Shown here: positions 32,798 to 52,279 of the stretch, one piece after another
Numbering within the stretch: the stretch's first letter is position 1
How the letters are laid out: each line of letters opens with the position of its first letter
Assembly: GCF_000331995.1 (NCBI RefSeq)
Contig: NC_020134.1
Span: 1,711,465-1,775,464 of the forward strand
DNA length: 64,000 nt
Reading direction: 5' to 3'
From: Thermoclostridium stercorarium subsp. stercorarium DSM 8532
Lineage (GTDB): Bacteria; Bacillota; Clostridia; DSM-8532
Notes under the pieces: model-generated
What the model saw: only the letters and a program-made list of their open reading frames with translations
The model's database searches: none
Told to the model about the DNA's origin: nothing
Program-made: the position numbers and the translations under genes

Positions 32798-33484
32798 TTA
32801 CTGGCCGTAATAAGCGTTTGCGCCGTGTTTTCTGAAGAAATGTTTATTCATAAGCACCGTGTCCATAGGCCCGATTTTTGGATTTAACATTATTGTATTA
32901 AATGCCATTTTGGCAACTTCCTCAAGAACAACTGCATTGTGCACCGCATCCAGCGCATCTTTGCCCCATGCAAAAGGCCCGTGCATGTTTACAAGCACCG
33001 CGGGTATGTCCATGGGATCTTTCCCTGAGAATGTCTCCACAATGACATTTCCGGTTTCTTTCTCATAATCGCCGTTAATTTCCGCAGGAGTCATTTTTCT
33101 TGTGCATGGTATCTCACCATGGAAATAATCGGCATGAGTTGTTCCAAAAGCCGGTATTCCCATCCCGGCCTGGGCAAAGGAGGTAGCCCACGGTGAATGG
33201 GTATGCACAATTCCGCCGATATTCCTGAACGCTCTGTAAAGTACGAGATGGGTGGGTGTATCGGACGAAGGTTTCAGGTTCCCTTCCACCTTGTTGCCGT
33301 CCAAATCCACCACAACAAGATGTTCTTTTTTCAGCTCGGAATATGGCACTCCGCTTGGTTTTATAACCACAAGGCCCGTTTCCCTGTCTATTCCGCTTAC
33401 ATTTCCCCATGTAAATGTCACAAGGCCATGTTCTGGCAACGCCAGGTTTGCCCGTAAAACCTGTTCTTTCAGTTCGTCAAGCAT
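32798..33484 (-). CDS. araD: L-ribulose-5-phosphate 4-epimerase
   Basis: A 228-residue class II aldolase-fold epimerase that forms D-xylulose 5-phosphate, the last step of arabinose entry into the pentose phosphate pathway. Zinc ligands are His94 and His96 (VHTHSPWA) and His168 (NMHGPFAWG), with Asp75 (SSDTPTH) as in E. coli AraD. Typical length. AAGGGG precedes the ATG. It lies 31 bases after araB in the araR-araB-araD operon. Confidence 0.97.
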
Positions 33485-33515
33485 ATTATCGCCCCTTACA
33501 GAATATTAAGTTTAG

Positions 33516-35192
33516 TTATGATTTTGAAACGCTCTTTTTTATTTCTTTCAAGCGCTTCATAACGTCATTCTGGCCCCTGCCGAAGTAATCATGGAGTATT
33601 TTGTATTCCTGATAAAGTTTCTCATAAACAGCCACGTTTTCCGGGATTGGTTTGTATACCTTATCCAACACCTTTGCCATAACTTTCGCAGCATCAACAA
33701 TGCTGTCAAAACCACCCCTTGCAGAACCGGCAGCCACTGCCCCGAACATCGCTGATCCCAGTGCCGGAGTCTGAGGTGAAGCCGAAATTCTTATTTCCCT
33801 GTTCGTAACATCTGCATATATCTGCATCATCATTTCATCCTTCTGAGCAATACCGCCGGCGGCATACAGCTCGTATATCGGAACACCATGTTCCTCGAAA
33901 TTGTCTATTATCATTCGTGTTCCATACGCCGTAGCTTCAATTAATGCTCTGTAAATTTCCTCGGGTTTTGTAAGCAGCGTACATCCCAGAAGCATACCTG
34001 TCAGATCCACATCAACAAGAACGGAACGGTTTCCGTTCCACCAGTCCAGAGCGAGAAGACCGCTCTCTCCGGGTTTTAACCTGCTTGCTTTTTCTCTCAG
34101 AACCTTATGTATGCTGACTCCGCGATCCCTTGCCTCTTTTTTGTATTCCTCGGGAACACAGTTTTCAATAAACCACTGGAAATGGTCGCCGACACAGGAC
34201 TGACCGGCTTCGTAGCCCAAATACCCGGGTATTATTCCGTCTTCAACAACACCGCATATGCCGGGAACCATCTTTTCTTCAGTTCCGAGGAGCATATGGC
34301 ATGTGGACGTGCCTATTATCATCAGCATTTTTCCCGGTTCGGTAATTCCCACCGCAGGTACGGCTACATGGGCATCAACGTTACCAACCGCCACGGCGGT
34401 TCCCGGCCTGAGTCCGGTTAATTTAGCAGCTTTTTCGGTAATTTCCCCCGCCTTTGTTCCTATCGGGTAAATATCCCTGCTTAACTTTTCGTCAACAAGG
34501 TTTTCCAGCCTTGGGTCCAGTGCTTTAAAAAATTCCTTCGAAGGATACCCCATCTTCTTATGCCATATTGCCTTGTATCCCGCCGTACAACTGTTCCTTT
34601 TTTCCACACCGGTCAGCTGGAGTACAATCCAGTCGGTTGCTTCAATAAACCTGTCAGCAGCTTCATATATTTCAGGAGCTTCATTTAATATCTGCCATAT
34701 CTTCGGAATCAGCCATTCTGAAGAAATCTTCCCGCCGTAAAGCTGCAAAAATTTCTCACCGCGTTCCTGCGCAATCTGGTTCAGCCTGTTGGCTTCATCC
34801 TGTGCTGCATGGTGTTTCCACAGCTTTACATATGCGTGCGGTTGTGTTTTATATTTTTCATCAAAGCACAAAGGATTGCCTTCCTTATCAATCGGAAGCA
34901 TCGTGCAGGCCGTAAAATCAATGCCTATTCCTATGACATCGTCGGGTGATACGCCTGACTCTTTTAAAACAGCCGGAATGGTTTCAGCCAATACATCGAG
35001 GTAATCCTGCGGATGCTGCAGAGCCCAGTCCGGTTCAAGCCTTACGTTGCCATAAGGAAGATATTCGTCCATAACGCCATGCGGGTATTCCTTTACAGCG
35101 GTTGCAATTTCATTGCCGGTATCGACCTCCACGAGAACTGCCCTTCCCGAAAGTGTTCCAAAATCAACACCTATGGCATATTTTTTTGCCAT
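33516..35192 (-). CDS. araB: L-ribulokinase
   Basis: A 558-residue FGGY family kinase that phosphorylates L-ribulose. It has the N-terminal [14 protein letters not shown] phosphate loop, the substrate-region [14 protein letters not shown], and the C-terminal [20 protein letters not shown] block; it is the long AraB type rather than xylulokinase. ATG 35192 (MAKKYAIG) is chosen, seven bases after GGAGGG; a TTG two codons upstream is less likely. It lies between araR and araD. Confidence 0.97.
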
Positions 35193-35248
35193 AAACAACC
35201 CTCCGTTTCATAAATTTTATATCAAGGCCCCTCATGCGGGTAACCCGT

Positions 35249-36328
35249 TCAGCCGTTTACCCGCCCCGTGCTGTTTCTTACAACAAGCTCGGGGGTCATT
35301 TTAACTTTAAAAATACCGTCTCCTTCTTTTATCATTTTCAGCATTAGATTTGCAGCCTCTATACCCAGCTTTTCCTTGGGATGGGCAACCGTTGTCATTT
35401 TCACCTCTGAAGCCACGGCCAGCTCCGAATCGTCAAAACTGACCAGCGACAACCGTTCCGGAATTGTTAATCCTTTTTCTCTGATAATATCAATGACTTT
35501 AATGCTTATCTGCTCGTTGTAACATACAAGTGAAGTTGAATCTTCCAGAAACTCAATAACCATATCACCCGACTGTTTGCCGAACTTATACAGCATGTCG
35601 TCGGTGCCGAACCACATAATTCTTTTATCGTTTATATCAATCCCCGACTCCCTGTGCGCCCTGCAGTAACCTTCGAATCTTGCATGACCCTGAATATCGT
35701 CAATTTTGAATATTCCGGCGATTTTCCTGTGACCAAGTTCTATCAGGTGCTTTGTGGCAATATATCCCGCCTCAACATCGTCTTCATATATTGAAGACGC
35801 GGAATAACCTTTGTAGCTGCCGTGCATGAACAAAACAGGTATATTTCTCTTTCTGAATTCATCATACAGTTCAATATTAGGATTGGGCAGAGCGCTTTTT
35901 GTTGTCTCGACAATAAGTCCTTTAATGTCCTGCTTCATGAAATTCTCAAGGCATTGCCTTTCCTTGTCAAACTGGTTGTTCGTACATCCAAGGGCAATAC
36001 TGTATCCGTTCTCACTCAGAACCTGATCAATGCCTCGGATTATGGAAGGGAAAATATAGTCCCCTATGTACGTTGTAATAACCCCTATCAGGTTTTGCCT
36101 GCTTTTGGGCTCGTTGTTTACAAACGTACCTTTGCCCTGGCTTGTTATTAAAACGCCTTCATTGACTAGCTCACTTATTGCCCTTCTTACGGTATGCCTG
36201 CTTATATGGAATTTTTCCGCAAGTTCGTTTTCTGAAGGAATTTTGTTTCCCCGCGGCAGTTCATTGTTTTCAATAAGACCAATCAGATATTCCTTAAGCT
36301 GCAGGTACTTTGGCTTGTCCTGTTCCAA
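35249..36328 (-). CDS. araR: Arabinose repressor AraR (GntR/LacI chimera)
   Basis: About 360 residues: an N-terminal GntR-type winged helix (KYLQLKEYLIGLIENNELPRG, then IPSENELAEKFHISRHTVRRAISEL) joined to a LacI/GalR-type sugar-binding domain (LIGVITTYIGDYIFPSIIRGIDQVL and RIMWFGTDDML). This architecture defines AraR. The start is unclear: TTG 36328 has GGTGG upstream, and the frame is open to 36343 (TTG) with GTG codons between. The promoter in front carries an AraR-like operator on its -35 element, so the gene is probably self-regulated. Confidence 0.94.
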   Translation of the reverse strand: MEQDKPKYLQLKEYLIGLIENNELPRGNKIPSENELAEKFHISRHTVRRAISELVNEGVLITSQGKGTFVNNEPKSRQNLIGVITTYIGDYIFPSIIRGIDQVLSENGYSIALGCTNNQFDKERQCLENFMKQDIKGLIVETTKSALPNPNIELYDEFRKRNIPVLFMHGSYKGYSASSIYEDDVEAGYIATKHLIELGHRKIAGIFKIDDIQGHARFEGYCRAHRESGIDINDKRIMWFGTDDMLYKFGKQSGDMVIEFLEDSTSLVCYNEQISIKVIDIIREKGLTIPERLSLVSFDDSELAVASEVKMTTVAHPKEKLGIEAANLMLKMIKEGDGIFKVKMTPELVVRNSTGRVNG

Positions 36329-36367
36329 AAAGCTCACCACCAACAGACAATATCACTGTATATGTAT

Positions 36368-36396
36368 ATTATATCATGCACAACTTGTATGCACAA
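36368..36396 (-). promoter_or_regulatory. araR promoter with overlapping AraR-like operator
   Basis: Minus strand: TTGTGC (36396-36391), 17-base spacer, TATAAT (36373-36368). The operator TTGTGCATACAA (complement of 36385-36396) covers the -35 element; a half copy, TTGTGCAT, follows within the spacer. The same 12-mer recurs before araA. Confidence 0.75.
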
Positions 36397-36481
36397 CCAA
36401 AAAAAACAGTTTGAAACAAAACTATTTTCTTTTTCAGCATTTACTGTTATAATTTAATTGTAGCAAGAAAGACGTAAAGTT

Positions 36482-36510
36482 TTGCATTTATTTCAGGTTG
36501 TGCATACAAT
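36482..36510 (+). promoter_or_regulatory. araA promoter with overlapping AraR-like operator
   Basis: TTGCAT (36482-36487), 17-base spacer, TACAAT (36505-36510). The operator TTGTGCATACAA (36498-36509) covers the -10 element and is identical to the araR operator read on the minus strand. The TTGT-N4-ACAA form resembles AraR boxes of Bacillus. Repression of both directions is inferred. Confidence 0.75.
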
Positions 36511-36649
36511 TAACCGGTACAGCATAAATATAATTACCGAATGTGGCTATAACAGGCCTGACAAATGAAAACCGGTTTTCGGTAAAATCAGTAAACCGGT
36601 TCAAAATAAAATTGACGCCGGCAAAATAATATATTTTTAAGGGGGAAGC

Positions 36650-38137
36650 ATGATGATACAAAAAAACTATAACTTTTGGTTTGTAACCGGAAGCCAGCAT
36701 TTGTACGGCGACGACACGCTGAAAGAGGTTAACAGGCATTCGGAAATAATTGCCTCGTGGCTTGACCAGAACACCCTGCCTCACTGCAACGTAGTATTTA
36801 AACCCGTCCTTACAACTCCCGAAGAAATTCTCAATCTCTGCGCCGAAGCCAATTTCGACAAGACCTGTGCGGGAATCATTACATGGATGCACACTTTCTC
36901 GCCTGCGAAGATGTGGATATCCGGATTAAATGAGCTTAAAAAACCTCTCCTTCACCTCCATACCCAGTTCAATTGCGAAATTCCCTGGGATACCATCGAT
37001 ATGGATTTCATGAACCTTAACCAGTCAGCCCACGGCGACAGGGAATATGGATTTATCGGCGCCAGAATGCGCATACCAAGGAAAGTTGTTGTAGGATATT
37101 ATAAAGACCCAGAAGTGAGCCGCGAAATACAGGTTTGGATGAACGCAGCAATCGCTTTTGTTGAAGGTAAAAATATCAAGGTTGCGCGTTTCGGAGACAA
37201 TATGCGCCAGGTGGCCGTTACCGAAGGTGACAAGGTTGAGGCTCAAATTAAATTTGGCTGGTCTGTGGACGGATACGGCGTAGGGGATCTGGTGGATTAC
37301 GTTTCCAAAGTAACAAACGACGAAATTGAAAATGTATTGGAAACATACAAAAAACTGTACGAATTCCCGTCTGATCCCAATACCCATGACGCAATCAGGG
37401 AACAGGCAAAGATAGAAGCAGGCTTGAAAAAATTCCTCGATGATGGCGGATATACCGCATTTACCACAACCTTTGAAGACTTGCATGGATTAAAGCAACT
37501 TCCCGGCCTTGCCGTTCAGCATCTTATGCATGAAGGTTACGGATTTGGCGCCGAAGGAGACTGGAAAACGGCTGCTTTGGTTCGCACAATGAAAATTATG
37601 AATACCGGCTTGCCTGAAGGAACATCCTTTATGGAGGACTACACTTATCACCTCGAACAGAACAATGAAATGATTCTCGGCGCCCACATGCTTGAAGTCT
37701 GCCCTTCCGTGGCTGCTGAGAAACCGAGGATTGAAGTCCACCCGTTAAGCATCGGCGGAAAAGCCGATCCTGCACGTCTGGTTTTCAAAGGCAGAAGCGG
37801 CCCTGCCATCGCCGCGTCTCTGGTTGACTTGGGAGATCGTTTCCGCCTGATTGTAAACGAAGTTGAGGCCATTGAACCCACGAAGGATATGCCGAGGCTG
37901 CCGGTGGCAAGAGTTCTCTGGAAGCCAAAGCCTTCGCTCCGCGATGCCGCCAAAGCATGGATTCTTGCCGGTGGGGCGCACCATACGTCTTTCTCATATT
38001 CAGTTACAACCGAGCATATGATGGACTGGGCAGAAATGGCGGGAATCGAGTTTGTTCTGATTAATGAAAATACCACTGACTTGTACAGATTCAGAGAGCA
38101 GCTTAGAATAAATGACTATGTCTGGAGAGCCCGCTGA
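36650..38137 (+). CDS. araA: L-arabinose isomerase
   Basis: A 495-residue enzyme that converts L-arabinose to L-ribulose. It has FWFVTGSQHLYG at the start, ITWMHTFSPAKMW, HTQFN, EDYTYHLE and the metal-binding His/Glu set of AraA; length is typical. A tandem ATGATG follows GGGGGAAGC; 36653 is equally possible. It stands alone, divergent from araR-araB-araD and ended by its own terminator. No arabinose transporter lies beside it. Confidence 0.97.
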   Translation: MMIQKNYNFWFVTGSQHLYGDDTLKEVNRHSEIIASWLDQNTLPHCNVVFKPVLTTPEEILNLCAEANFDKTCAGIITWMHTFSPAKMWISGLNELKKPLLHLHTQFNCEIPWDTIDMDFMNLNQSAHGDREYGFIGARMRIPRKVVVGYYKDPEVSREIQVWMNAAIAFVEGKNIKVARFGDNMRQVAVTEGDKVEAQIKFGWSVDGYGVGDLVDYVSKVTNDEIENVLETYKKLYEFPSDPNTHDAIREQAKIEAGLKKFLDDGGYTAFTTTFEDLHGLKQLPGLAVQHLMHEGYGFGAEGDWKTAALVRTMKIMNTGLPEGTSFMEDYTYHLEQNNEMILGAHMLEVCPSVAAEKPRIEVHPLSIGGKADPARLVFKGRSGPAIAASLVDLGDRFRLIVNEVEAIEPTKDMPRLPVARVLWKPKPSLRDAAKAWILAGGAHHTSFSYSVTTEHMMDWAEMAGIEFVLINENTTDLYRFREQLRINDYVWRAR

Positions 38138-41416: not shown

Positions 41417-43429
41417 TTACTTTTTGTCCCTCCATCTGGCAAAGGAATATTCACCACGGTAATTTGAGAAATTATAGCGCGGGTATTTATCAGGCACATA
41501 TTCCCTGTCGGCAATTTCACAGGGTCTGTCCTGAGTATATATGTACATTTTGTTCTCATCCCACAGTATTATTTCATCCCTTGCATCCCCCATGATATCA
41601 ATAACTTCGGCACATAAATCCGGATGTCCGTCGTCAGGGAATGACACAACCACATCACCTTCGCCGTCAATCATTCCGCCGTATTTGACATTCCCGTTAA
41701 GCAGTATCAGTTCAGTCCCGTCACCGCACCAGTTAACAGGCGCAATAATATTTCCGTTGCTCGATGGTTCCATATGCCAGATTTCATTTCCCTTGCAGTC
41801 GTACAGGTATATAATCCCCTGGTTTCCCCAGTACGTCGTGGTACAAATCTGAAGCCCCGGTATGTCTGAGCGGAATTTACCTGCGCTGATACGCTGTCCG
41901 TGACCGTTAATATCCCGCACAAGAATGTTTCCGTTCTTGTCCACAATCATAAAGCCTTCCCAGCCTGCCACAAGGGCTATTAATTCATCCCGATCGGGAT
42001 CAAATTTACCATAAATGATTTCGTCCACATGATCGGTTTCAATGGGCAGCTTCCATATCAGTTTTCCGTCACTGGAAACAAGATTGTAGCAGCTTATAAT
42101 CTCGTCCTTTCCGTCCCCGTTAATATCGCAGGAATACGGAAAATGCCCGGTATTGTTGTGAGTGAACTTCCATAATAAATTCAAGTCGCTGTCATACACC
42201 CAAAGACGGCTGTATCTGTCTTTTATCAGAATATCTGTCGGCCTTTCCTTGCCTGAAACATTAACAATTCGTATTGCGTCAACGTTTACCCTGTCGAAGG
42301 CATGTTTTTTAAATTCAATGCCGCAAAGCTTATCTGCCGGGTCTTCATTAAACGGCGTCGGAACGCTTTTTTTCACCTTTCCTGTTTTCCCGTCAAGAAT
42401 CATCAGTTTAAAATTTCTGGACATTATGACTTCGTCAGCGCCGTCGCCGTCAATATCGTATACCTGGAAAGGCAGATCCGCGGTAAGATACGCATTGTCT
42501 TTTAATCTGCTCGGCTCACCTATCTGCCACAGGACTTCTCCGGTTTCAATGCTCACTGCCGTAAGGCAGCTTATAACGGCATACCTGTCCTTATATACGC
42601 GTTTCTGATGCTGCGCCATTACAAAAAACCATTCATCGGTTCCGGTAAGGTGCCCGAAACGTATCTGCCTTCCTGCTCCGAAATCCTTGAGATCTATAAT
42701 TTTAACAAGTTTCGGTTGCGGGTATTTAAGGCGCTTATCGGCGACGCGTTTTTCTTTTACCTGTTTCTTCCTGATATAATTCTGATATTCATCAGAATCG
42801 CAGCAAACTTTTACGTCGGTAAACTGAGTGGGCATATAAGCCGCAATCGCAATAGAACCATATGAATAACGGTCGTTTACCGCTTCTATCAGCAGCTTAT
42901 TGTCGACATAACATTTCATTAAATGGCCTTTTACGTCCACCTTCAGCTCATAAAACGTGTCGCAGTTGAAGTCAAAATTTGCCTCGCCAAGAAGTTCCCT
43001 CTTTTCCTTCTCTACGAGGTATAAGCAGGCCTTCTGATCACACAGCATGAAAGCATAATGCATAAGGCTTGTCTGATACCTGAAAAGCAGGCCGGCGGGC
43101 TCTTTTGTATACAAAGGCCGCATTCTGACCGAAACGGTATAATCTTCCCAGTCCTTGTCGCCTGCTACAAGTGTAGGACATGATATATGCTTTCCGGGGG
43201 TAAGTACGCGCATCTGCTCCATGAATTTTTTGCCGTCTTCTTCGGTAACAATCCACGAAGGTCCGCGGTAGTTGGAATCGGTTATCGGATCATACCACTG
43301 CCCCGTATACCCTTTTACAGGGTAATAGTGATATTCCCCCATTGCGGAATGTTCCGGATCATATGGAAAAGGTCCGATGGGAAAATCAGTAAAATCGTTG
43401 CTGAAAAGCAAAATTTTTTTATCGTCCAT
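41417..43429 (-). CDS. Cytosolic jelly-roll plus FG-GAP-like beta-propeller protein, putative glycan-active
   Basis: A 670-residue protein without signal peptide. Residues about 55-230 look like a concanavalin/LamG or 3-keto-disaccharide-hydrolase-like jelly roll (DYTVSVRMRPLYTKEPAGLLFRYQ split; LKVDVKGHLMKCYVDNKLLIEAV). The rest is a propeller with calcium-type loops at blade ends: YDIDGDGADEVI, CDINGDGKDEII, ILDGKTGKV. Similar C-terminal blades occur in rhamnogalacturonan lyases, but I see no catalytic signature. It is the last gene of the ABC importer operon (78 bases after the binding protein gene), so it may process or bind the imported oligosaccharide. GGGGTGAATTG precedes the ATG. Confidence 0.75.
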   Translation of the reverse strand: MDDKKILLFSNDFTDFPIGPFPYDPEHSAMGEYHYYPVKGYTGQWYDPITDSNYRGPSWIVTEEDGKKFMEQMRVLTPGKHISCPTLVAGDKDWEDYTVSVRMRPLYTKEPAGLLFRYQTSLMHYAFMLCDQKACLYLVEKEKRELLGEANFDFNCDTFYELKVDVKGHLMKCYVDNKLLIEAVNDRYSYGSIAIAAYMPTQFTDVKVCCDSDEYQNYIRKKQVKEKRVADKRLKYPQPKLVKIIDLKDFGAGRQIRFGHLTGTDEWFFVMAQHQKRVYKDRYAVISCLTAVSIETGEVLWQIGEPSRLKDNAYLTADLPFQVYDIDGDGADEVIMSRNFKLMILDGKTGKVKKSVPTPFNEDPADKLCGIEFKKHAFDRVNVDAIRIVNVSGKERPTDILIKDRYSRLWVYDSDLNLLWKFTHNNTGHFPYSCDINGDGKDEIISCYNLVSSDGKLIWKLPIETDHVDEIIYGKFDPDRDELIALVAGWEGFMIVDKNGNILVRDINGHGQRISAGKFRSDIPGLQICTTTYWGNQGIIYLYDCKGNEIWHMEPSSNGNIIAPVNWCGDGTELILLNGNVKYGGMIDGEGDVVVSFPDDGHPDLCAEVIDIMGDARDEIILWDENKMYIYTQDRPCEIADREYVPDKYPRYNFSNYRGEYSFARWRDKK

Positions 43430-43506: not shown

Positions 43507-45063
43507 TTATTTGTTATATGAATTATTATACCATTCAGTATAAAGTTCTACCCAGCGTTCCCCTCCATATTTATACCAGCCTGCAACATAATCATCCCAT
43601 GTAGCGTCTATGTCTTTTTTACCCATAATCACTTCGTCACGGTATGACGCTACATATGTGTCAAAGTCATAATCACTGAGTTCACTGAATTCCGGGGCTG
43701 ATACATAAATCGGGTCATTTGTTCCATACTGTTCGGAAAGCTTAAGATGCTCCATTGCAAGTTCTCCCCATGACTGGGTAAGGATTGGAAGCAGCTGGCT
43801 GTCTACTTTGCTCTTCTGATGTCCAAGGGTAATAAAGCGCCATGCCCAGTTAATTCCGGCCCTGTCTTCACGGATTACTATTTCACCGTTAACTTTGTCG
43901 TAATCCCAGCCTTCAATTCCTGCATGAACATATACCGAACCTTCATCTGTTTCAGACCAGTCAAATATCTGAAGTACTTTTTCAGGATACTTGCACGCTG
44001 TTGTAATTCCTATCCAATGTCTTATAGGTGTTGCGTATACATATTTTGACTCTCCTCCTCCGTTAACTTTCTGCGGAGGTCTGAGAGGATACAGATTTTC
44101 TCTCATTGAACTTAAGGTTGAAAGCGACCAGAATAAGTTCAGAACTCCAAATTTTCCATTCATAAACTCTTCTTCGGTCTGTTTCTGCGTCTTTGTTATG
44201 TAGTCAGGAACTATGATACCGTCAGCATAAAGCTTTGCAAGGAACTTCAGATAATCTTTGTATCCATCGGTAATATAATTGGGAATCACTTTTCCATCCA
44301 CTACCTGGAACTGAGCTGCATCAAAAGCATCTATGAAAAGCATTCCCATATAACGTTCCGCAACACTGTTCATGGCCGTGCCGCCACTGCAGCCGCTTAA
44401 GCCATATGTATCATTAAGACCGTTGCGATCGGGATCATTGTACGTAAAAGCATATAACATATTGTAATAGTCGTCTACAGTTTTTAAAGTTGAAGGATCA
44501 ATGCCCAGGTTCTCAAGCCAGTCTTTCCTTGCATATGAAAGATACGGGGTAGTATCATACCTTACAAAAGGTATTCCATAAATACTTCCGTCTATTTTTG
44601 AGTAATTCCAGTACTTTTCGTCAACGCCGGCCATCAGATTGGGATAATCGGTTTCATTGAGCAAATCATCAAGTTTTATCAGCGCACCGTCATAAGCGTA
44701 TTTAAAATATAGTGATTTTGAAAGCTGCACATAATCCGGGTAATCCCCTGATGCCATAACGGTATTAACCTTATTTTCATAGTTTGAACTTTCACTGATA
44801 ATTTCAATATCAATATTCAGTGTATCACGCAGATAGTTGATATACGGGTTGTCGTTTACGTCATACCCTTCGGTGTCTACATTAATCTGGCAAAGGAAAG
44901 TCAGTTTCACCCGTTTATCAGTATTTGTGCCTGACTGCTGGGCAGAGCCCGTTTCAGATTTTCCACCTGAATCCGCTGCAGTCGTTCCGGTATCTGTCTT
45001 GCCACAAGCGGCGATGGACACGACTAACACCAAACACAAAATCACCGCTAAGGCCTTCCTCAT
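43507..45063 (-). CDS. Extracellular sugar-binding lipoprotein (LplA/YtcQ type)
   Basis: A 518-residue solute-binding lipoprotein of the large family that serves LplB/YtcP-type importers. Lipobox SIAAC with lipidated Cys20; a Ser/Gly/Thr-rich linker follows. NPYINYLRDTLNIDIEI, YGIPFVRYDTTPYLSYARKDWLENLGID (split) and the large C-terminal lobe fit oligosaccharide binders of plant cell-wall systems. AAAAGGAGG precedes the ATG. It is third in the operon after the two permeases. Confidence 0.93.
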   Translation of the reverse strand: MRKALAVILCLVLVVSIAACGKTDTGTTAADSGGKSETGSAQQSGTNTDKRVKLTFLCQINVDTEGYDVNDNPYINYLRDTLNIDIEIISESSNYENKVNTVMASGDYPDYVQLSKSLYFKYAYDGALIKLDDLLNETDYPNLMAGVDEKYWNYSKIDGSIYGIPFVRYDTTPYLSYARKDWLENLGIDPSTLKTVDDYYNMLYAFTYNDPDRNGLNDTYGLSGCSGGTAMNSVAERYMGMLFIDAFDAAQFQVVDGKVIPNYITDGYKDYLKFLAKLYADGIIVPDYITKTQKQTEEEFMNGKFGVLNLFWSLSTLSSMRENLYPLRPPQKVNGGGESKYVYATPIRHWIGITTACKYPEKVLQIFDWSETDEGSVYVHAGIEGWDYDKVNGEIVIREDRAGINWAWRFITLGHQKSKVDSQLLPILTQSWGELAMEHLKLSEQYGTNDPIYVSAPEFSELSDYDFDTYVASYRDEVIMGKKDIDATWDDYVAGWYKYGGERWVELYTEWYNNSYNK

Positions 45064-45091
45064 AAGATATACCTCCTTTTAAATTCACAAT

Positions 45092-45982
45092 TTATCCTTT
45101 CACAGAACCGACCATAATGCCCTTCACAAAATATTTTTGCAGGAAGGGATATACCATTAAGATCGGCAGTGTGGAAGCAAAAATAGTGGCAGTTTTAAGT
45201 GAAAGCGTTGGCATCCAGCGCGCTGAAGCATCGCCAAAAAGGTCATCGGTCTGACCTGCTGCGACGATGTCGTTTAGGTATACCTGAAGAGGTTTTTTAG
45301 AAGGAGTATTTATATAAAGGATACCATCCATCAATGAATTCCAGTGATATACTGAAATGAAAAGTGTAATGGTCGCAATCGCCGGCATAGCCACCGGGAT
45401 CATCAGCTTATAGAATATTATCAGGTCGTTTGCCCCGTCTATTTTAGCTGACTCTTCAATTTCATCGGGAATACCTTTGAAAAAGTTTACCAGAACTATT
45501 ACGTTGAATGTATTTATCATATTAGGAATTATCAATGCCCAAATTGAATCAATCAAACCTGTATACCGCACAACAAGATATGTCGGAATTATTCCGCCGT
45601 TAAATAACATCGTAAAAACGATAAACACCATGAAAAACTTTCTTCCTCTGAGATACTTCCTTGACACCGCATATGCAAGCGAACTTGAAAGGGTAACTCC
45701 CAGTGCCGTACCAATTAAAGTCCGTATTACCGATATCCTGAAGGATGAATAAAAACGTGCGTGATTGAAGGTAACTTTATACGCCTGAAGTGAAAAACCT
45801 TTAGGCCACAGAATTATCTGACCCTCACGGACAAATTGGGGAGCACTTATTGAAACGACAAAAATATAGTAAAATGGGAACAGACACATAAGACCAAACA
45901 ATGTCATTACAATATAACTGATTATCTTAATTACATCGGTTTCTTCCCTGATTTGCTCCCTGTTTTTACCCACAGAAATCAT
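45092..45982 (-). CDS. Sugar ABC transporter permease, YtcP/LplC type
   Basis: A 296-residue CUT1 permease with six predicted helices and the EAA loop EIEESAKIDGANDLIIFYKLMIPVAMP that docks the ATPase. Start: ATG 45982 lies right against GAGGG of the coupling region; GTG 45973 (VGKNREQIR) would have better spacing. It follows the partner permease by three bases. The ATPase subunit is not encoded here; an MsmX-like shared ATPase elsewhere is expected. Confidence 0.93.
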   Translation of the reverse strand: MISVGKNREQIREETDVIKIISYIVMTLFGLMCLFPFYYIFVVSISAPQFVREGQIILWPKGFSLQAYKVTFNHARFYSSFRISVIRTLIGTALGVTLSSSLAYAVSRKYLRGRKFFMVFIVFTMLFNGGIIPTYLVVRYTGLIDSIWALIIPNMINTFNVIVLVNFFKGIPDEIEESAKIDGANDLIIFYKLMIPVAMPAIATITLFISVYHWNSLMDGILYINTPSKKPLQVYLNDIVAAGQTDDLFGDASARWMPTLSLKTATIFASTLPILMVYPFLQKYFVKGIMVGSVKG

Positions 45983-45985
45983 CCC

Positions 45986-46942
45986 TCACCATAAGCTTTT
46001 TTCAAAGCATCTTTTACTTATAGCATTACAGATTAAAAGAAGTATAAAGCCTATTACCGACTGAAAAAGACCAATAGCGGTGGTAAGACTGAAGCGTCCG
46101 TTTCCAATACCCACTCTGTAAACATATGTGCTTATGACATCGCCTGTACTGTATACTGTAGGATTAGCCAGAACATAAATCTGTTCAAAACTTACGTTCA
46201 TAATTCTTCCAATGTCCAGAAGCAACATAACGATTATGGTTTCTGAAATACAGGGTATGGTAATATACCGTATGAGCTGCAGTTTGTTTGCCGAATCGAT
46301 TTTAGCTGCTTCATACAACTGAGGATCAATATTTGTAATTGCAGCCAAATATATAATAGTTCCCCAGCCGGCTTCTTTCCATATATCAGAAGCAACCACA
46401 ATCCATCGGAAATATTTGGGCTCTGACATAAAGAAAATTGGTTCCTTCCCCATTAATTTTATTACCTGGTTTACAATGCCATCAGTTGGACTTAGGAACG
46501 TAATAATGATACTTCCGAATACAACCCATGATACAAAATGGGGAAGATATATCAGTGTCTGAAGAGTTCTTTTGTATTTAACATTCATAATCTCGTTTAA
46601 CATAATTGCAAAAATTATCGGAGCCGGAAAATAAAATATTAGTTTCAAAACATTGATTGCAAGGGTATTTTCAACCAGTTGCCAGAAATTGCGATGTTCA
46701 AAGAAAATATATTTAAAATATTTTAAACCCACAAACTCGCTGCCTTTAATACCCTTAACAACATTGAAATCGCAAAAGGCTATATAAAGCCCTAACATTG
46801 GGAGGTACCTGTAAATTAAAAACCATATTACTCCCGGTACAAGCATCAAATATAACCACCGATTTTTCACAATATCTCTGACAAGCTGATGAAAATATCC
46901 GGGACATTTTTTTACAAATTTTTTGTTCGCCACCGAGTCCAT
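45986..46942 (-). CDS. Sugar ABC transporter permease, LplB/YteP type
   Basis: A 318-residue CUT1 permease. YLMLVPGVIWFLIYRYLPMLGLYIAF is the typical first helix region of LplB proteins and LYEAAKIDSANKLQLIRYITIPCI is the EAA loop. GGAG lies six bases before the ATG. First gene of the importer operon, divergent from the YesM/YesN pair that probably controls it. Confidence 0.94.
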   Translation of the reverse strand: MDSVANKKFVKKCPGYFHQLVRDIVKNRWLYLMLVPGVIWFLIYRYLPMLGLYIAFCDFNVVKGIKGSEFVGLKYFKYIFFEHRNFWQLVENTLAINVLKLIFYFPAPIIFAIMLNEIMNVKYKRTLQTLIYLPHFVSWVVFGSIIITFLSPTDGIVNQVIKLMGKEPIFFMSEPKYFRWIVVASDIWKEAGWGTIIYLAAITNIDPQLYEAAKIDSANKLQLIRYITIPCISETIIVMLLLDIGRIMNVSFEQIYVLANPTVYSTGDVISTYVYRVGIGNGRFSLTTAIGLFQSVIGFILLLICNAISKRCFEKSLW

Positions 46943-47139
46943 AGAACACTCCTGCTAACTTCTGAGATTTTTATGTACTAATTTTATCATGGTTTTATAA
47001 ATTTTCGAATATAACAAAACTGAGTTTCACCATTAAAAAACTGACTTTTTGCACAAAAAACAACATCAATAAAATATTTTTTTATGCTATTATATATACG
47101 GACATGACTTTAGCATCACAATATGACGGAGATGGTGCG

Positions 47140-48939
47140 GTGTTCGACAAAATTAGCTCAATACTAAAACCCAACACACTTAAAGGCAAACTTTTATCCA
47201 TGCTTATGATAGCAATTTCCATTATCTGCGTTTTTTCGATCCTGATAACTATAGTCCTTTGGCATATAAGCAATAAAATGCTGCAACATTCCATGACCGA
47301 AGCCATGAGTTATGCAGCCGAACGTCTTGAAAGCGTATTCGATGCGACTTCAGGGATTGCGGTACTTATGGCGGAAGATCCCGTGTTACTGAATTACGTA
47401 AAGGAGCCCGTTACCAACAATAAGCCTGAATTTGCCAGAACAGGAGAAATAACCAAGGCTTTGGCAAACTACTGCAATAATAATCCTTATATTTCTTATA
47501 TATATTTATGGCAAAACGGAAAGTACCGTGATGAAGACGGTTCGATTATACGGTATTCAAGATACTACCCTGTGGCGTCGATGATTAAGGAAGATTCGCG
47601 CCGTAAACTGAATGAAGTTGCCGTGGAAAAGAACGGAAAAGTTGAATACTGTTTTCTTGACGAGGACAAGGAAGGCATTTTCCTGACCCGTGTTATACAT
47701 ACAATCGATGACTATACTTTCATAAACCACGGTGTACTTGCCATACGCCTTAATGTTCAGCGGCTTTTAAAAGATCTTTCAAAAGCGAATAATACATCAG
47801 AACAGACCATCCTCCTTCTTGCAAATGATGAAGAGGTTCTTTTTTCTTCCCAGAAACTGCCCGAAGCAATCTGCAAAAAAATTCTAAGTATGAACAGGGA
47901 GTATAAAGTGCTTAAAATAAACGGAAAAAATTATTTTGTCATGGAACGCCATTTTAAACTGCTCGGATTAAGGTATTTTTATATGGCTTATTACGAAAAT
48001 TACCACCTTTTACGTTCTATTTACATCATAACGACAGTTGTAATCATTTTAGTCGCGTCAATACTTTTTTTTACAAGCAAGCACATTCTCGATTCAATTA
48101 CAATACATTTTGACAATTTAATAAAAAAGATGGTAATATACAGCAACGGTAATTTTGAGTCAATTGACGTAGGCTATGACTATTCAAAACGGAATGATGA
48201 AATAGGTATGGTTCATCAACAGTTTGACAAAATGGCTGATCAGATACGAACACTGATTAACGACAATTATGTAAAACAACTTCTGCTTAAAGAAGCGCAA
48301 TTTAAACAGCTTGAACAGCAAATTAATCCCCATTTCCTGTATAATACTCTTGAAACAATCAACTGGTACAGCGAGGCAGCAGGCGAGCACAAGATTGCTC
48401 AGCTTGTCCGCGCTCTTGGAAGTACCCTGAGGAGTACACTCGAGCGCAGCGATATAGTCACCATAAAAAGCGAACTTGAACTGGTAAATAATTACATGAC
48501 AATTCAGAAAATCCGTTACGAGAATCGGCTGGAATATTACATTGACGCCGATGAAACTTTGCTAAACTGCCGAATCCCGAAAATAACCATACAACCCATT
48601 GTTGAAAATGCAATTAAATACGGTCTGGAAGAAAATATGGATACCTGCTATATTTATATTTACGTAAAACAGTGTGGAAATGACATATGTATTACCGTTA
48701 AAAACACCGGTTCAGAATTCGAGGAAAACATTATAGACAAAATCAAGGAACAACATGTTGTGCCACAGGGATTTGGAATTGGACTTCGTAACATACACGA
48801 CAGACTGCAGCTTGCGTATGGCCAAAATTACGGTTTAACCGTATCCAATGAAGACAATATGGCCGTTGTAAGAATTAAACTGCCAAAAATAGAGAGTGAA
48901 TTAAAGGAGGAGGAACATGTACAAACTTATAATAATTGA
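47140..48939 (+). CDS. YesM-type sensor histidine kinase
   Basis: A roughly 599-residue membrane kinase. Two membrane segments (about residues 17-40 and 300-320) flank an extracellular sensor; a HAMP domain follows, then the His_kinase domain with the phospho-acceptor in QINPHFLYNTLE and the ATP-binding lid NPTVENAIKYG-like IVENAIKYGLE and GFGIGLRNIHDRL. GTG 47140 (VFDKISSIL) is preferred with GGAG eight bases before; the frame is open to an ATG at 47104 without a site, close to the likely TATATA -10. It works with the downstream response regulator and, by position, senses the sugar handled by the divergent importer. Confidence 0.93.
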   Translation: MFDKISSILKPNTLKGKLLSMLMIAISIICVFSILITIVLWHISNKMLQHSMTEAMSYAAERLESVFDATSGIAVLMAEDPVLLNYVKEPVTNNKPEFARTGEITKALANYCNNNPYISYIYLWQNGKYRDEDGSIIRYSRYYPVASMIKEDSRRKLNEVAVEKNGKVEYCFLDEDKEGIFLTRVIHTIDDYTFINHGVLAIRLNVQRLLKDLSKANNTSEQTILLLANDEEVLFSSQKLPEAICKKILSMNREYKVLKINGKNYFVMERHFKLLGLRYFYMAYYENYHLLRSIYIITTVVIILVASILFFTSKHILDSITIHFDNLIKKMVIYSNGNFESIDVGYDYSKRNDEIGMVHQQFDKMADQIRTLINDNYVKQLLLKEAQFKQLEQQINPHFLYNTLETINWYSEAAGEHKIAQLVRALGSTLRSTLERSDIVTIKSELELVNNYMTIQKIRYENRLEYYIDADETLLNCRIPKITIQPIVENAIKYGLEENMDTCYIYIYVKQCGNDICITVKNTGSEFEENIIDKIKEQHVVPQGFGIGLRNIHDRLQLAYGQNYGLTVSNEDNMAVVRIKLPKIESELKEEEHVQTYNN

Positions 48940-49957
48940 CGATGAAAAAATAATCCGCGAAACAATCGGTTCAATGATAGACTGGAAAAGTATAGATGTA
49001 GAACTTGTCGGGTTATGTTCAAACGGTATGGAAGGCCTTGATATGATAATAGACGAAGACCCCGATATAGTTATGACAGACATTCGTATGCCAGTGTTTT
49101 CGGGACTGGAACTAATAAAAAGAATAAGGCAGCTTAATAAGGACATAGAGTTTATCATTCTTTCGGGATACAGTGAGTTTGAATACGCCCGCACGGCTAT
49201 GGCCTTAAATGTAAAATATTATATTCTAAAGCCTTGCAGCAAGGAAACAATTATCAATACCGTAAAGCAGGCAATAGAAGACTGCTGCAGTAAGAAAAAA
49301 ACCGTGCCGAGTTATATTTTTAAAATAGCAAGAAAACTGAGTCAGGATTTTATTGAAAAGATAAAGCAACCTGAAGAAATCATAAATGATATGTTTAACT
49401 TGTTGTCGGACAACAATGACTGTGATTACGTAAAAGCTGTGGTATTGAGCTTTCTGACAAATATTTGGTACTCTTATGTTAACTTAATCGATTCCTCAAT
49501 ATATTATAATGAACTGGAAAACTCAAAAACAAAAGAAGAAATCATGGAATTTCTGAATGGCCATCTGAAACTGCTAAGCCAAAAAATAATCAGAAATTCA
49601 AAACCGTTGGACAGTTCAAAGGAATTTATAAAAAAATGCATTGAGTATGCTAAAGAAAATTTTTCCAATCCCTCCCTCACGCTAAAATATATTGCCGAAA
49701 ATTATCTTTACATGAATGTTGACTATGTCAGCAGACAGTTCTGCAAAATAACAGGCGAAAAATTCTCTACTTTTCTCGGCAGGTTAAGAGTAGAGAATGC
49801 AAAAGATATTTTACGCAAAAACCCGGATGAAAAAATATATACTGTGGCAGAAATGGTTGGCTGCGGAAACAATCCGCAGTACCTGACTCAGCTTTTCAAA
49901 AAGTATGAAGGTATTACACCAAGCGCATTTGTTAACTTACTGAAAGGGAATGCCTAA
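48917..49957 (+). CDS. YesN-type response regulator with AraC DNA-binding domain
   Basis: A 346-residue regulator. Receiver domain (1-120) with acidic pocket DD at 8-9, phospho-acceptor Asp55 (MTDIRMP) and YILKPCSKE; C-terminal AraC helices (about 240-343: LTLKYIAENYLYMNVDYVSRQF and a PQYLTQLFKKYEGITPSAF end). The middle linker is short for this group, whose members often exceed 500 residues. The gene overlaps the kinase gene by 23 bases, with AAAGGAGGAGG before its ATG. Confidence 0.94.
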   Translation: MYKLIIIDDEKIIRETIGSMIDWKSIDVELVGLCSNGMEGLDMIIDEDPDIVMTDIRMPVFSGLELIKRIRQLNKDIEFIILSGYSEFEYARTAMALNVKYYILKPCSKETIINTVKQAIEDCCSKKKTVPSYIFKIARKLSQDFIEKIKQPEEIINDMFNLLSDNNDCDYVKAVVLSFLTNIWYSYVNLIDSSIYYNELENSKTKEEIMEFLNGHLKLLSQKIIRNSKPLDSSKEFIKKCIEYAKENFSNPSLTLKYIAENYLYMNVDYVSRQFCKITGEKFSTFLGRLRVENAKDILRKNPDEKIYTVAEMVGCGNNPQYLTQLFKKYEGITPSAFVNLLKGNA

Positions 49958-49978: not shown

Positions 49979-52081
49979 CTACTTGAAAAATATATTCACA
50001 TTGTTTCTGTTTATCTCATATATACCTGTATCTTCCTTTTCTTTTATAGTTTTACCGTTGCATAATTCATTAAGCCTTCTGACACAGAGTTCACCCCATA
50101 ACCTTGGCCTCTGGGCAAGCACAGTGGTATAGCCGTCCCTTACGGGTTTTTCCGAGTACTCGGTTTTGTCAAATACCACACAGACAGGCGTTATGCCCAG
50201 CTCTTCCCTGATTTTTCCCGCTATGTAACTTCCAGAAGCATCCATACATATAAAGCAGTCAAAATTTCTTATTTTCTGAATAAAGGCCTTAACGGCCTGC
50301 CATCTCCGTTCTCCGTCTTTTTCATCGGTTTCACATATTTCAACCAGCTCAATGTCAGGGTATTTTTTTATTGTTTCGATAAACCCGGCCATGCGCTCTT
50401 TCTGGTTTAAAGTCTGTTTTTTGGCCTGTGTTCCGATAACACGGCCTTTATAATTAAGTTTTTTCGCAACCAGTTCGCCGAAAGTTATTCCCGCTTTGTA
50501 GTTGTCGGTTCCTATAAATGCATCCCTTCCGATATCTGGTATATCGGTGTCAAAACAAATTACCTTGATTCCCATATTCATGGCCTTTTTCAGGCTTTCC
50601 CTCACTTCAGGCCCGTCAATTGGGCCTATCCCTATTCCCGAAACACCCATTGCTACAACTTCGTCTATCAATTCGGCCTGGAGTCTGGAATCATATTTCT
50701 CGGGAGCACGCCATATTAAATCCACCCCCAGTTTTGCCGCCGCATCTTCTGCCCCTTCCCTTGTCTCGGAGAAAAATTCTATATCGACGCATGGAATTAT
50801 TGCAAAAGAACGTTTTCTGGCTTCAACTTTGGTATAGTTAAACTTGTTTAAAGCATCATCAAGATTCTTAATGAGGGTATCAAAACTTTCAGAAAGCTGA
50901 ACAAGTATTTCCGAAGAATTGGTCTGGGAAAACATAAGAGTGGCAATCTCCTGGGTTGAAGCAACTGTTTTTTCAGCGACGGAAGAAATATTGGCTATGG
51001 AATTATAAAGCTTTTGTTTAACCTTGTCCAGAATTCCGATTCCGGTTTTGACTTCAATCAGCTGATTATATAAATCATTTATCGCCTTTGAGATTTCGTT
51101 GAACGCATCTCGCGTTTTATACACCGATTGGGTCTGAAGCCTTATTGTATCGGAAGTAGCCAATATTGTTTCGGTGGTTACATTTATTTGATTCTGTATA
51201 CCGAGTACAATCTTTTTAATTTCTTCACTCGAAACCGCACTTTGCTGGGCCAGCCTTTTTATCTGCTCGGCAACCACTCCGAAGCCTTTACCGGCTTCTC
51301 CGGCCCGTGCGGCTTCTATTGATGCATTCAGAGCCAGAAGATTTGTCTGGCCTGCAATCTGCGCCATGGCTGTGGTTATCCTGTCTATATTCTCGGCCAT
51401 CTTATTCAGTTCGTTAATTTTACTGTTTATTTCCCCCATATTGATTTCGGTCAGCTTGCTTTTATCAAGCAGCTCATTAATGTTTGCCTTCCCGAACTCG
51501 GACACGGCTTTTGTATTTTCAGCCTTTCGTGTCATAATTTCTGCGGATTTTGCAACCTCTTCAAACATGGTCAAAAGCTCAGAGGTTATTTTAGTACTCT
51601 CCTCTGCGTCATTCGCCTGTTCTATTGCCCCTTTTGATACCAGTTCGGCTGATGCGGCTATTTGGTTTGCCACTTCGGACGCTTCTTTTGACGTGGCTTT
51701 AACGGTATTTACAAGATGTTTAACTTCTTCCGCTGAATGTCCCACTTTCGAAAATACATCGTCAAGATATTTAATGAATTTTTCAAATTCCGTCAAAATA
51801 CCTTTTGCCCCTTTATTTTTATTCCGTTGCATCGCTGCAAGCAAATCACCGTTACTGGCATTTAACAGGGTTTCTGCCAGAAATTTGTATTCTGCATTCA
51901 TTCGTATTGAGATCAGAATCAGCGGTATGTTTCCCGCCAGCGCAAGAAATAATGAAATGTAAATTATTAATTTTAAAATTTCGGGTTTGTAAAAGAAAGA
52001 TAATGTTATCAAAACAATTGGAAAAACTGACGTGAGAATATGTGAAATAAAAACCACAACCGGCTTTTCGTTTTTTCTCAT
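49979..52081 (-). CDS. Chemoreceptor signalling domain fused to a sugar-binding-protein domain
   Basis: A 700-residue fusion. Two membrane helices at the N-terminus (about 10-58) have almost no loop between them, so no extracellular sensor exists. Residues about 110-410 form an MCP coiled coil with the CheA/CheW-binding tip ([20 protein letters not shown]). From about 425 to the end lies a type I periplasmic-binding-protein domain like RbsB/LacI ([21 protein letters not shown]-like [49 protein letters not shown]). By topology this sugar domain is cytosolic. ATG 52081 has GGGG eight bases before; ATG 52087 is alternative. It follows the two-component genes tail to tail. Role: probable sensing of internal sugar or of a transport-linked signal. 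Confidence 0.9.
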
Positions 52082-52279
52082 ATTCATTTCCCCTTAAAAA
52101 AATAACTCTATTATTTATATCGGTTATTTCTGATTGTTTTATAATATTAATGCTATTTTTATTTTTAATTCCCATTAAAACCTTAACATATGCAATATTG
52201 CAACATATTTCCTTACAGCTGAATACCCGCTGAAAGCCCGTGGCTTATCATCATGCACTTTACCGACTTTGTGCCCTTA
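52082..52279. other. Intergenic stretch upstream of the MCP fusion gene
   Basis: AT-rich and without a coding frame. It should hold the promoter of the minus-strand chemoreceptor gene; I see no convincing pair of hexamers. Confidence 0.3.

What the first reader, a model, noticed from the sequence alone, without database searches (positions are those of the whole stretch)
49979..52081. Chemoreceptor with a cytosolic sugar-binding-protein domain fused at its C-terminus
Seen: two N-terminal helices with almost no outside loop, a full MCP coiled coil with tip motif, then a complete RbsB/LacI-type binding domain of about 270 residues. Known: MCPs normally sense outside the membrane, and such binding domains are normally extracytoplasmic or in repressors. 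Inference: the protein couples cytosolic sugar level to CheA, linking uptake by the adjacent importer and YesM/YesN system to swimming direction.
Basis: partly seen in the sequence, partly recalled or inferred. Interest (0 to 1): 0.68.

Follow-up and report, generated by a model that had tools for sequence, protein, structure and literature searches.

The report
Chemoreceptor with built-in cytoplasmic sugar-binding domain
This gene encodes a bacterial swimming-control receptor that carries a sugar-binding-protein domain fused to its inner end, apparently to sense something inside the cell rather than outside; the fusion is real, is conserved across many Clostridia, and the design probably arose twice.

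Summary
The ORF is on the minus strand (52087..49979, 702 aa; start at 52081 also plausible): a two-helix membrane hairpin with a ~12-residue loop, a canonical MCP domain (Pfam 115 bits) and a complete Peripla_BP_4 domain (160 bits). It is not an assembly join: the architecture recurs in six family-level groups (11 of 391 class genomes sampled), with tip-to-C-terminus length nearly constant (448-455 residues). One relative, in a rhamnose operon, has no TM helix at all. That supports a cytosolic binding domain. A second set of MCP-PBP fusions carries PBPs from another branch (AU test against one clade p = 1.3e-6), so the PBP was acquired at least twice. The PBP is under purifying selection about as strong as the MCP (omega 0.05-0.15), while the hairpin and HAMP-like linker are relaxed (0.2-0.5). 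Key pocket residues of RbsB (F15, F16, D89, R141, D215, Q235) are identical. Best reading: a membrane-anchored chemoreceptor sensing a cytoplasmic sugar-like ligand through its C-terminal domain. The ligand is unknown; a link to the adjacent importer/YesMN is not supported beyond the genus. New variant of a known kind (C-terminal cytoplasmic sensors such as DcrH).

The parts
49979..52087 (-). MCP-Peripla_BP_4 fusion gene, 702 aa (alternative start ATG at 52081, 700 aa)
   Evidence: Open frame; Pfam MCPsignal and Peripla_BP_4
52004..52060 (-). Transmembrane helix 1 (residues 10-28)
   Evidence: Hydropathy 2.34 over 19 residues; helix 7-30 in AlphaFold model
51911..51967 (-). Transmembrane helix 2 (residues 41-59); about 12 residues between the two helices
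   Evidence: Hydropathy 2.36; helix 35-78 in AlphaFold model
51743..51901 (-). HAMP-like linker (residues 63-115), degenerate
   Evidence: No Pfam HAMP hit in this protein at E<=5; weak HAMP hit (E 0.0056, below cut-off) in relative L142; omega 0.2-0.5
50828..51742 (-). MCP cytoplasmic coiled coil (residues 116-420)
   Evidence: Pfam MCPsignal 216-369; omega 0.05-0.07; alignment A1
51239..51349 (-). Signalling tip (residues 247-283), [37 protein letters not shown]
   Evidence: Sequence; highly conserved in 17 group-1 relatives
49982..50809 (-). C-terminal type-I periplasmic-binding-protein domain (residues 427-702)
   Evidence: Pfam PF13407 160 bits; AlphaFold pLDDT mostly 75-93; Foldseek matches to sugar-binding proteins, best E 4e-22; RbsB pocket positions F15,F16,D89,R141,D215,Q235 identical (F438,F439,D513,R565,D640,Q659)
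47104..49957 (+). Convergent neighbour, context only: YesM-type histidine kinase (47104-48939) and YesN-type response regulator (48917-49957)
   Evidence: Pfam; adjacency kept only in congener G002
43507..46942 (-). Context only: LplB/YtcP-type importer permeases (45986-46942, 45092-45982) and lipoprotein (43507-45063)
   Evidence: Pfam BPD_transp_1 for the permeases (45092-45982 only 20.6 bits, below the 26.4 cut-off); no Pfam or NCBIfam hit for the lipoprotein, type read from the sequence

Best explanation
This is a membrane-anchored chemoreceptor whose sensor is its cytoplasmic C-terminal domain. The two N-terminal helices only anchor the receptor (shown: two TM helices, no extracellular domain; inferred: anchoring is their job). 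The MCP hairpin runs down to the CheA/CheW baseplate and back, so its C-terminal helix ends near the membrane beside the HAMP-like segment (inferred from residue counts and standard MCP geometry). There it carries a CUT2-type binding domain with an intact ligand cleft (shown by sequence, fold and selection). A cytoplasmic sugar or sugar-like metabolite closes the cleft (inferred). The movement passes into the C-terminal helix and changes CheA activity, so swimming responds to the internal level of that compound (inferred).
For: Both domains score far over Pfam cut-offs. Same order in 17 group-1 proteins from six family-level groups, tip-to-C-terminus 448-455 residues. Topology of 31 fusions: 28 have exactly two N-terminal TM helices; L065 is cut by a contig end, L071 shows a third only because the mechanical ORF start lies upstream of its likely Met, and L146 has none, i.e. 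a soluble relative; no TM lies between MCP and PBP in any. The PBP has no signal peptide or lipobox. Cys in the PBP domain: group-1 median 4 (8 here), free SBPs 2 (p = 8e-5, not corrected for relatedness), LacI-type cytosolic proteins 4. Omega in four ortholog pairs: PBP 0.05-0.15, MCP 0.05-0.07, TM hairpin 0.22-0.51, HAMP-like 0.21-0.49. Pocket positions F15, D89, R141, Q235 identical in all 17 group-1 proteins, F16 and D215 in 16. Three CheA, nine CheW domains and FliG in the genome. Group-1 MCP and PBP trees broadly agree, so the parts were inherited together. The soluble relative lies in a rhamnose operon (RhaI 637 bits, cut-off 531).
Against: No ligand is known and no NCBIfam sugar-binding equivalog passes its cut-off (best RhaS, 75 of 342 bits). 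The window copy has one altered Glu pair in the usual methylation stretch (AEKT for AEET). CheA and FliG are also present in 13 relatives in which no fusion was found, so their presence does not discriminate. The AlphaFold coiled coil has low confidence. Transfer of motion from a closing PBP into the C-terminal MCP helix has no precedent that I know.
Confidence: 0.72

Rival explanations
1. The binding domain senses a cytoplasmic ligand but the output is not swimming direction: the receptor feeds another CheA pathway (the genome has three CheA), for example surface behaviour or gene expression.
For: Three CheA-type kinases in this genome; which one pairs with this receptor is untested.
Against: Canonical tip; FliG in every fusion genome tested.
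Confidence: 0.15
2. The ligand is not a sugar but an AI-2-like or nucleoside-type compound, so the receptor is an internal gauge of another metabolite.
For: LsrB and rhizopine models also hit weakly; Peripla_BP_4 includes the AI-2 binders LsrB/LuxP (PMC12268683).
Against: Nearest sequence and fold matches are glucose-, arabinose-, galactose- and ribose-type binders; one relative lies in a rhamnose operon.
Confidence: 0.2
3. The PBP domain is a structural or dimerisation module without ligand.
For: Some group-2 relatives have lost several pocket positions (L148, L150).
Against: In group 1 the pocket positions are kept in 16 or 17 of 17 proteins, and omega is 0.05-0.15.
Confidence: 0.08
4. The PBP domain is extracytoplasmic (unseen third TM helix or export of the C-terminus).
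For: Such domains are normally extracytoplasmic.
Against: No hydrophobic segment between MCP and PBP in any of 31 proteins; one relative has no TM helix at all; the PBP is Cys-rich.
Confidence: 0.03
5. Artefactual fusion of two genes by a sequencing or assembly error.
For: None found.
Against: The same fusion occurs in many independently assembled genomes at 37-80% identity over the PBP region.
Confidence: 0.005

Closest known systems
DcrH of Desulfovibrio vulgaris (MCP with C-terminal cytoplasmic hemerythrin domain; PMC9388753)
   Different: DcrH has a periplasmic region and HAMP and senses O2/redox by hemerythrin; here there is no extracellular domain and the sensor is a sugar-type binding domain
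CUT2 / Peripla_BP_4 solute-binding proteins (RbsB; T. maritima glucose-binding protein 2h3h; 5hqj)
   Same: Fold, Pfam family, pocket residues
   Different: Those are exported and hand ligand to an importer or a periplasmic receptor; here the domain has no export signal and is fused to its receptor
SBP-assisted chemotaxis in E. coli (RbsB and MglB with Trg, MalE with Tar; from memory)
   Same: A sugar-binding protein informs an MCP
   Different: There the SBP is separate and periplasmic and docks to the outer receptor domain
LacI/GalR regulators
   Same: Type-I PBP fold sensing cytoplasmic sugars
   Different: Output is DNA binding; in the PBP tree they fall away from the fusions
XylFII-LytS (5xsj)
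   Same: Type-I PBP used for signalling; structural match
   Different: Separate extracytoplasmic protein acting on a histidine kinase

Membership tests
Methyl-accepting chemotaxis proteins (PF00015) | MCPsignal domain over the curated cut-off | tested here: met
   115.4 bits, cut-off 34.6
Methyl-accepting chemotaxis proteins (PF00015) | Conserved hairpin tip for CheA/CheW contact | tested here: met
   [37 protein letters not shown], highly conserved in group 1
Methyl-accepting chemotaxis proteins (PF00015) | CheA and CheW encoded in the genome | tested here: met
   Three CheA, nine CheW domains
Methyl-accepting chemotaxis proteins (PF00015) | Glu/Gln methylation pairs | tested here: inconclusive
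   Many relatives have AEETAASTQEI; the window copy has [11 protein letters not shown]; methylation itself not testable
Methyl-accepting chemotaxis proteins (PF00015) | HAMP domain (common, not required) | tested here: not met
   No Pfam HAMP hit in the window protein at E<=5; weak in L142
Peripla_BP_4 domain family (PF13407) | Domain score over the curated cut-off, full length | tested here: met
   160.1 bits, cut-off 35.1, profile 5-257 of 258
Peripla_BP_4 domain family (PF13407) | Type-I PBP fold | tested here: met
   AlphaFold plus Foldseek, TM-score by target 0.70-0.88 among the 50 best
Peripla_BP_4 domain family (PF13407) | Ligand-pocket residues of RbsB | tested here: met
   F15,F16,D89,R141,D215,Q235 identical; N190 is D, N13 is I, R90 is T
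Extracytoplasmic solute-binding proteins of CUT2 importers | Signal peptide or lipobox and separate polypeptide | tested here: not met
   Fused behind the MCP, no export signal
Chemoreceptors with a C-terminal cytoplasmic sensor (DcrH type) | Non-MCP sensor domain after the MCP domain, on the cytoplasmic side | tested here: met
   Domain order and predicted topology
Chemoreceptors with a C-terminal cytoplasmic sensor (DcrH type) | Hemerythrin domain | tested here: not met
   No such Pfam hit
LacI/GalR regulators | N-terminal HTH | tested here: not met
   No HTH hit; separate position in tree

The most novel reading that the evidence does not exclude
A class of chemoreceptors that steers cells by an internal sugar level through a binding-protein domain acting on the C-terminal arm of the MCP hairpin, assembled independently at least twice in Clostridia. 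It would be a metabolism-sensing input that enters the receptor from the end opposite to the classical one.
Probability: 0.5. Interest if true: 0.75.

Novelty: new variant of a known kind. Interest (0 to 1): 0.58.

Why it matters
Sugar chemotaxis is usually explained by outside sensing or by sugar transport itself. A receptor that reads a cytoplasmic ligand with a real binding-protein cleft would give a direct, testable mechanism for metabolism-dependent taxis. It would also be a natural experiment on feeding a signal into an MCP from its C-terminal helix. The binding domain is self-contained and can be expressed and screened. In the papers searched I found no description of this architecture.

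Tried and rejected
Flagellar (sigma-D-like) promoter: TAAA-N14-CCGATAT lies 29 nt before the ATG and a diverged version precedes the G002 ortholog, but genome-wide the pattern is 21 against 12 for its backward control and was not seen before other recognisable motility genes; kept only as a lead. Ligand from gene neighbourhood: rejected because the neighbours are not conserved. Ligand by NCBIfam equivalogs: none over cut-off. CheA/FliG co-occurrence: uninformative, all 40 genomes have both. One origin for both fusion sets: rejected for the PBP part by the AU test; the backbone between the two sets in the MCP tree is weak, so exchange of the PBP domain on one old fusion is not excluded. Literature: ten searches found no paper describing MCPsignal followed by Peripla_BP_4; many journals are not held and architecture databases (InterPro, MiST) could not be queried, so such proteins have probably been annotated automatically before.

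Full report
Observation. The gene is on the minus strand, 52087..49979, 702 aa. Pfam finds MCPsignal (216-369, 115 bits) and a full Peripla_BP_4 domain (431-679, 160 bits). Two hydrophobic helices (10-28, 41-59) are separated by about 12 residues and nothing hydrophobic follows.

Not an artefact. The frame is single and open in a one-contig genome, in which it is the only one of the MCP genes read that has a PBP. In 60 relatives the PBP domain recurs within MCP frames of about 670-760 aa at 37-80% identity; examples read in full show the same order. In a sample of 391 genomes of the class, 11 have it, in five family-level groups; in a phylum sample one genome of another group has two copies. 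One copy is disrupted (G023, 574 aa) and one runs off a contig (G017). Named records of the family are Clostridiaceae/Clostridiales MAGs.

Two sets. A second set of fusions has the same order but a different tip (KLLGINASVEASKAGE in members of this family) and occurs in this family and in f54, where a genome can carry several copies. In the PBP tree, group 1 (17 rows) and group 2 (14 rows) are each one clade (97*, 100*) with different sister groups of free binding proteins. Holding them together costs 124 log units, p-AU 1.3e-6. The MCP tree also keeps them apart, with a weak backbone. Either the fusion formed twice or the PBP was exchanged once.

Origin of the binding domain. The nearest free relatives of group 1 (L110-L112, 33-37% identical; L114, 28%) are exported proteins, mostly lipoproteins by their N-terminal sequence. 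Three lie in loci with rbs-type ATPase and permease genes, and three lie next to YesM-like kinases (L157-L160). These neighbour types are read from sequence, not from domain searches.

Topology. Of 31 fusions, 28 have exactly two N-terminal TM helices. L065 is cut by a contig end. L071 shows a third only because its mechanical ORF start lies upstream of a more likely Met. L146 has none: it is a soluble MCP-PBP protein. No TM lies between MCP and PBP in any. With a cytosolic MCP tip the PBP must be cytosolic. The domain is also Cys-rich as in cytosolic proteins and lacks an export signal.

Function of the PBP. Alignment to E. coli RbsB (L152) shows F15, D89, R141, Q235 identical in all 17 group-1 proteins, and F16 and D215 in 16; L146 is the exception. 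N190 is D and N13 is I in the window protein. That these positions bind ribose in RbsB is from memory. AlphaFold gives the domain mostly at pLDDT 75-93 and Foldseek matches glucose-, arabinose-, galactose- and ribose-binding proteins. Omega in four ortholog pairs: PBP 0.05-0.15, MCP 0.05-0.07, TM hairpin 0.22-0.51, HAMP-like 0.21-0.49 (dS is near saturation in the window-L061 pair). Selection therefore holds the binding domain and the signalling domain, not the outward-facing part.

Mechanism. The arm from TM2 to the tip is about 200 residues and the arm from tip to PBP about 160; the difference is roughly the HAMP-like linker. The PBP therefore hangs next to that linker near the membrane (inference). 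Its closure on a ligand would act on the C-terminal helix. This step is not shown.

Neighbours. In the window the gene converges on YesN/YesM, beyond which lie importer genes. Only congener G002 keeps YesM/YesN; elsewhere the neighbours differ. The soluble relative in G576 (L146) lies in a rhamnose locus with RhaI (637 bits, cut-off 531), a RhaS-like binding protein, rbs-type permease and ATPase, class II aldolase and DeoR regulator. This is the clearest genomic pointer to sugar sensing, though for a distant member (about 30% identical) whose pocket differs at three of the positions.

Partners. Three CheA, nine CheW domains and FliG are encoded.

Known relatives. C-terminal cytoplasmic sensors on MCPs are known (DcrH, PMC9388753). 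A census of 82,277 MCPs took account of intracellular domains through Pfam hits (PMC8547431); its printed table for plant-associated bacteria shows one Peripla_BP_5 and no Peripla_BP_4. I found no paper describing this architecture. It is a new variant of a known kind.

Noticed in passing
L073-L078, L147-L151, L161: A second set of MCP-PBP fusions with an altered signalling tip (KLLGINASVEASKAGE in this family); f54 genomes carry several copies and some of those have lost the RbsB-type pocket residues.
   Followed up: partly
L146:5309-15864 (G576 C36): A naturally soluble 670-aa MCP-PBP fusion with no TM helix lies inside a rhamnose uptake and catabolism locus (RhaI, aldolase, DeoR, RhaS-like binding protein, rbs-type importer).
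   Followed up: yes
window 52117-52141 (-): TAAA-N14-CCGATAT, sigma-D-like, 29 nt before the ATG; also before the G002 ortholog. Genome-wide the pattern is near background.
   Followed up: partly
G000:C1:1947747-1950512 (L004, L015-L017): An MCP-like frame of 1494 aa with many near-identical coiled-coil repeats around a normal tip.
   Followed up: no
G000:C1:288656-289303 (L009): A 418-aa MCP with the same kind of short N-terminal hairpin but no binding domain.
   Followed up: no
window 32798-38137: L-arabinose genes araD, araB, a LacI-family-like regulator and araA, about 12-19 kb from the receptor gene.
   Followed up: partly
window 41417-43429 (-): 670-aa protein with a partial rhamnogalacturonan lyase 11 C-terminal match and no obvious signal peptide.
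   Followed up: no
L080:3565-5361 (G023 C85): A 598-aa lipoprotein made of two tandem copies of a sugar-type binding domain.
   Followed up: no
G000:C1:1851940-1852401 (L005): An MCP frame with one in-frame TGA, possibly a pseudogene; close paralog of L007.
   Followed up: no
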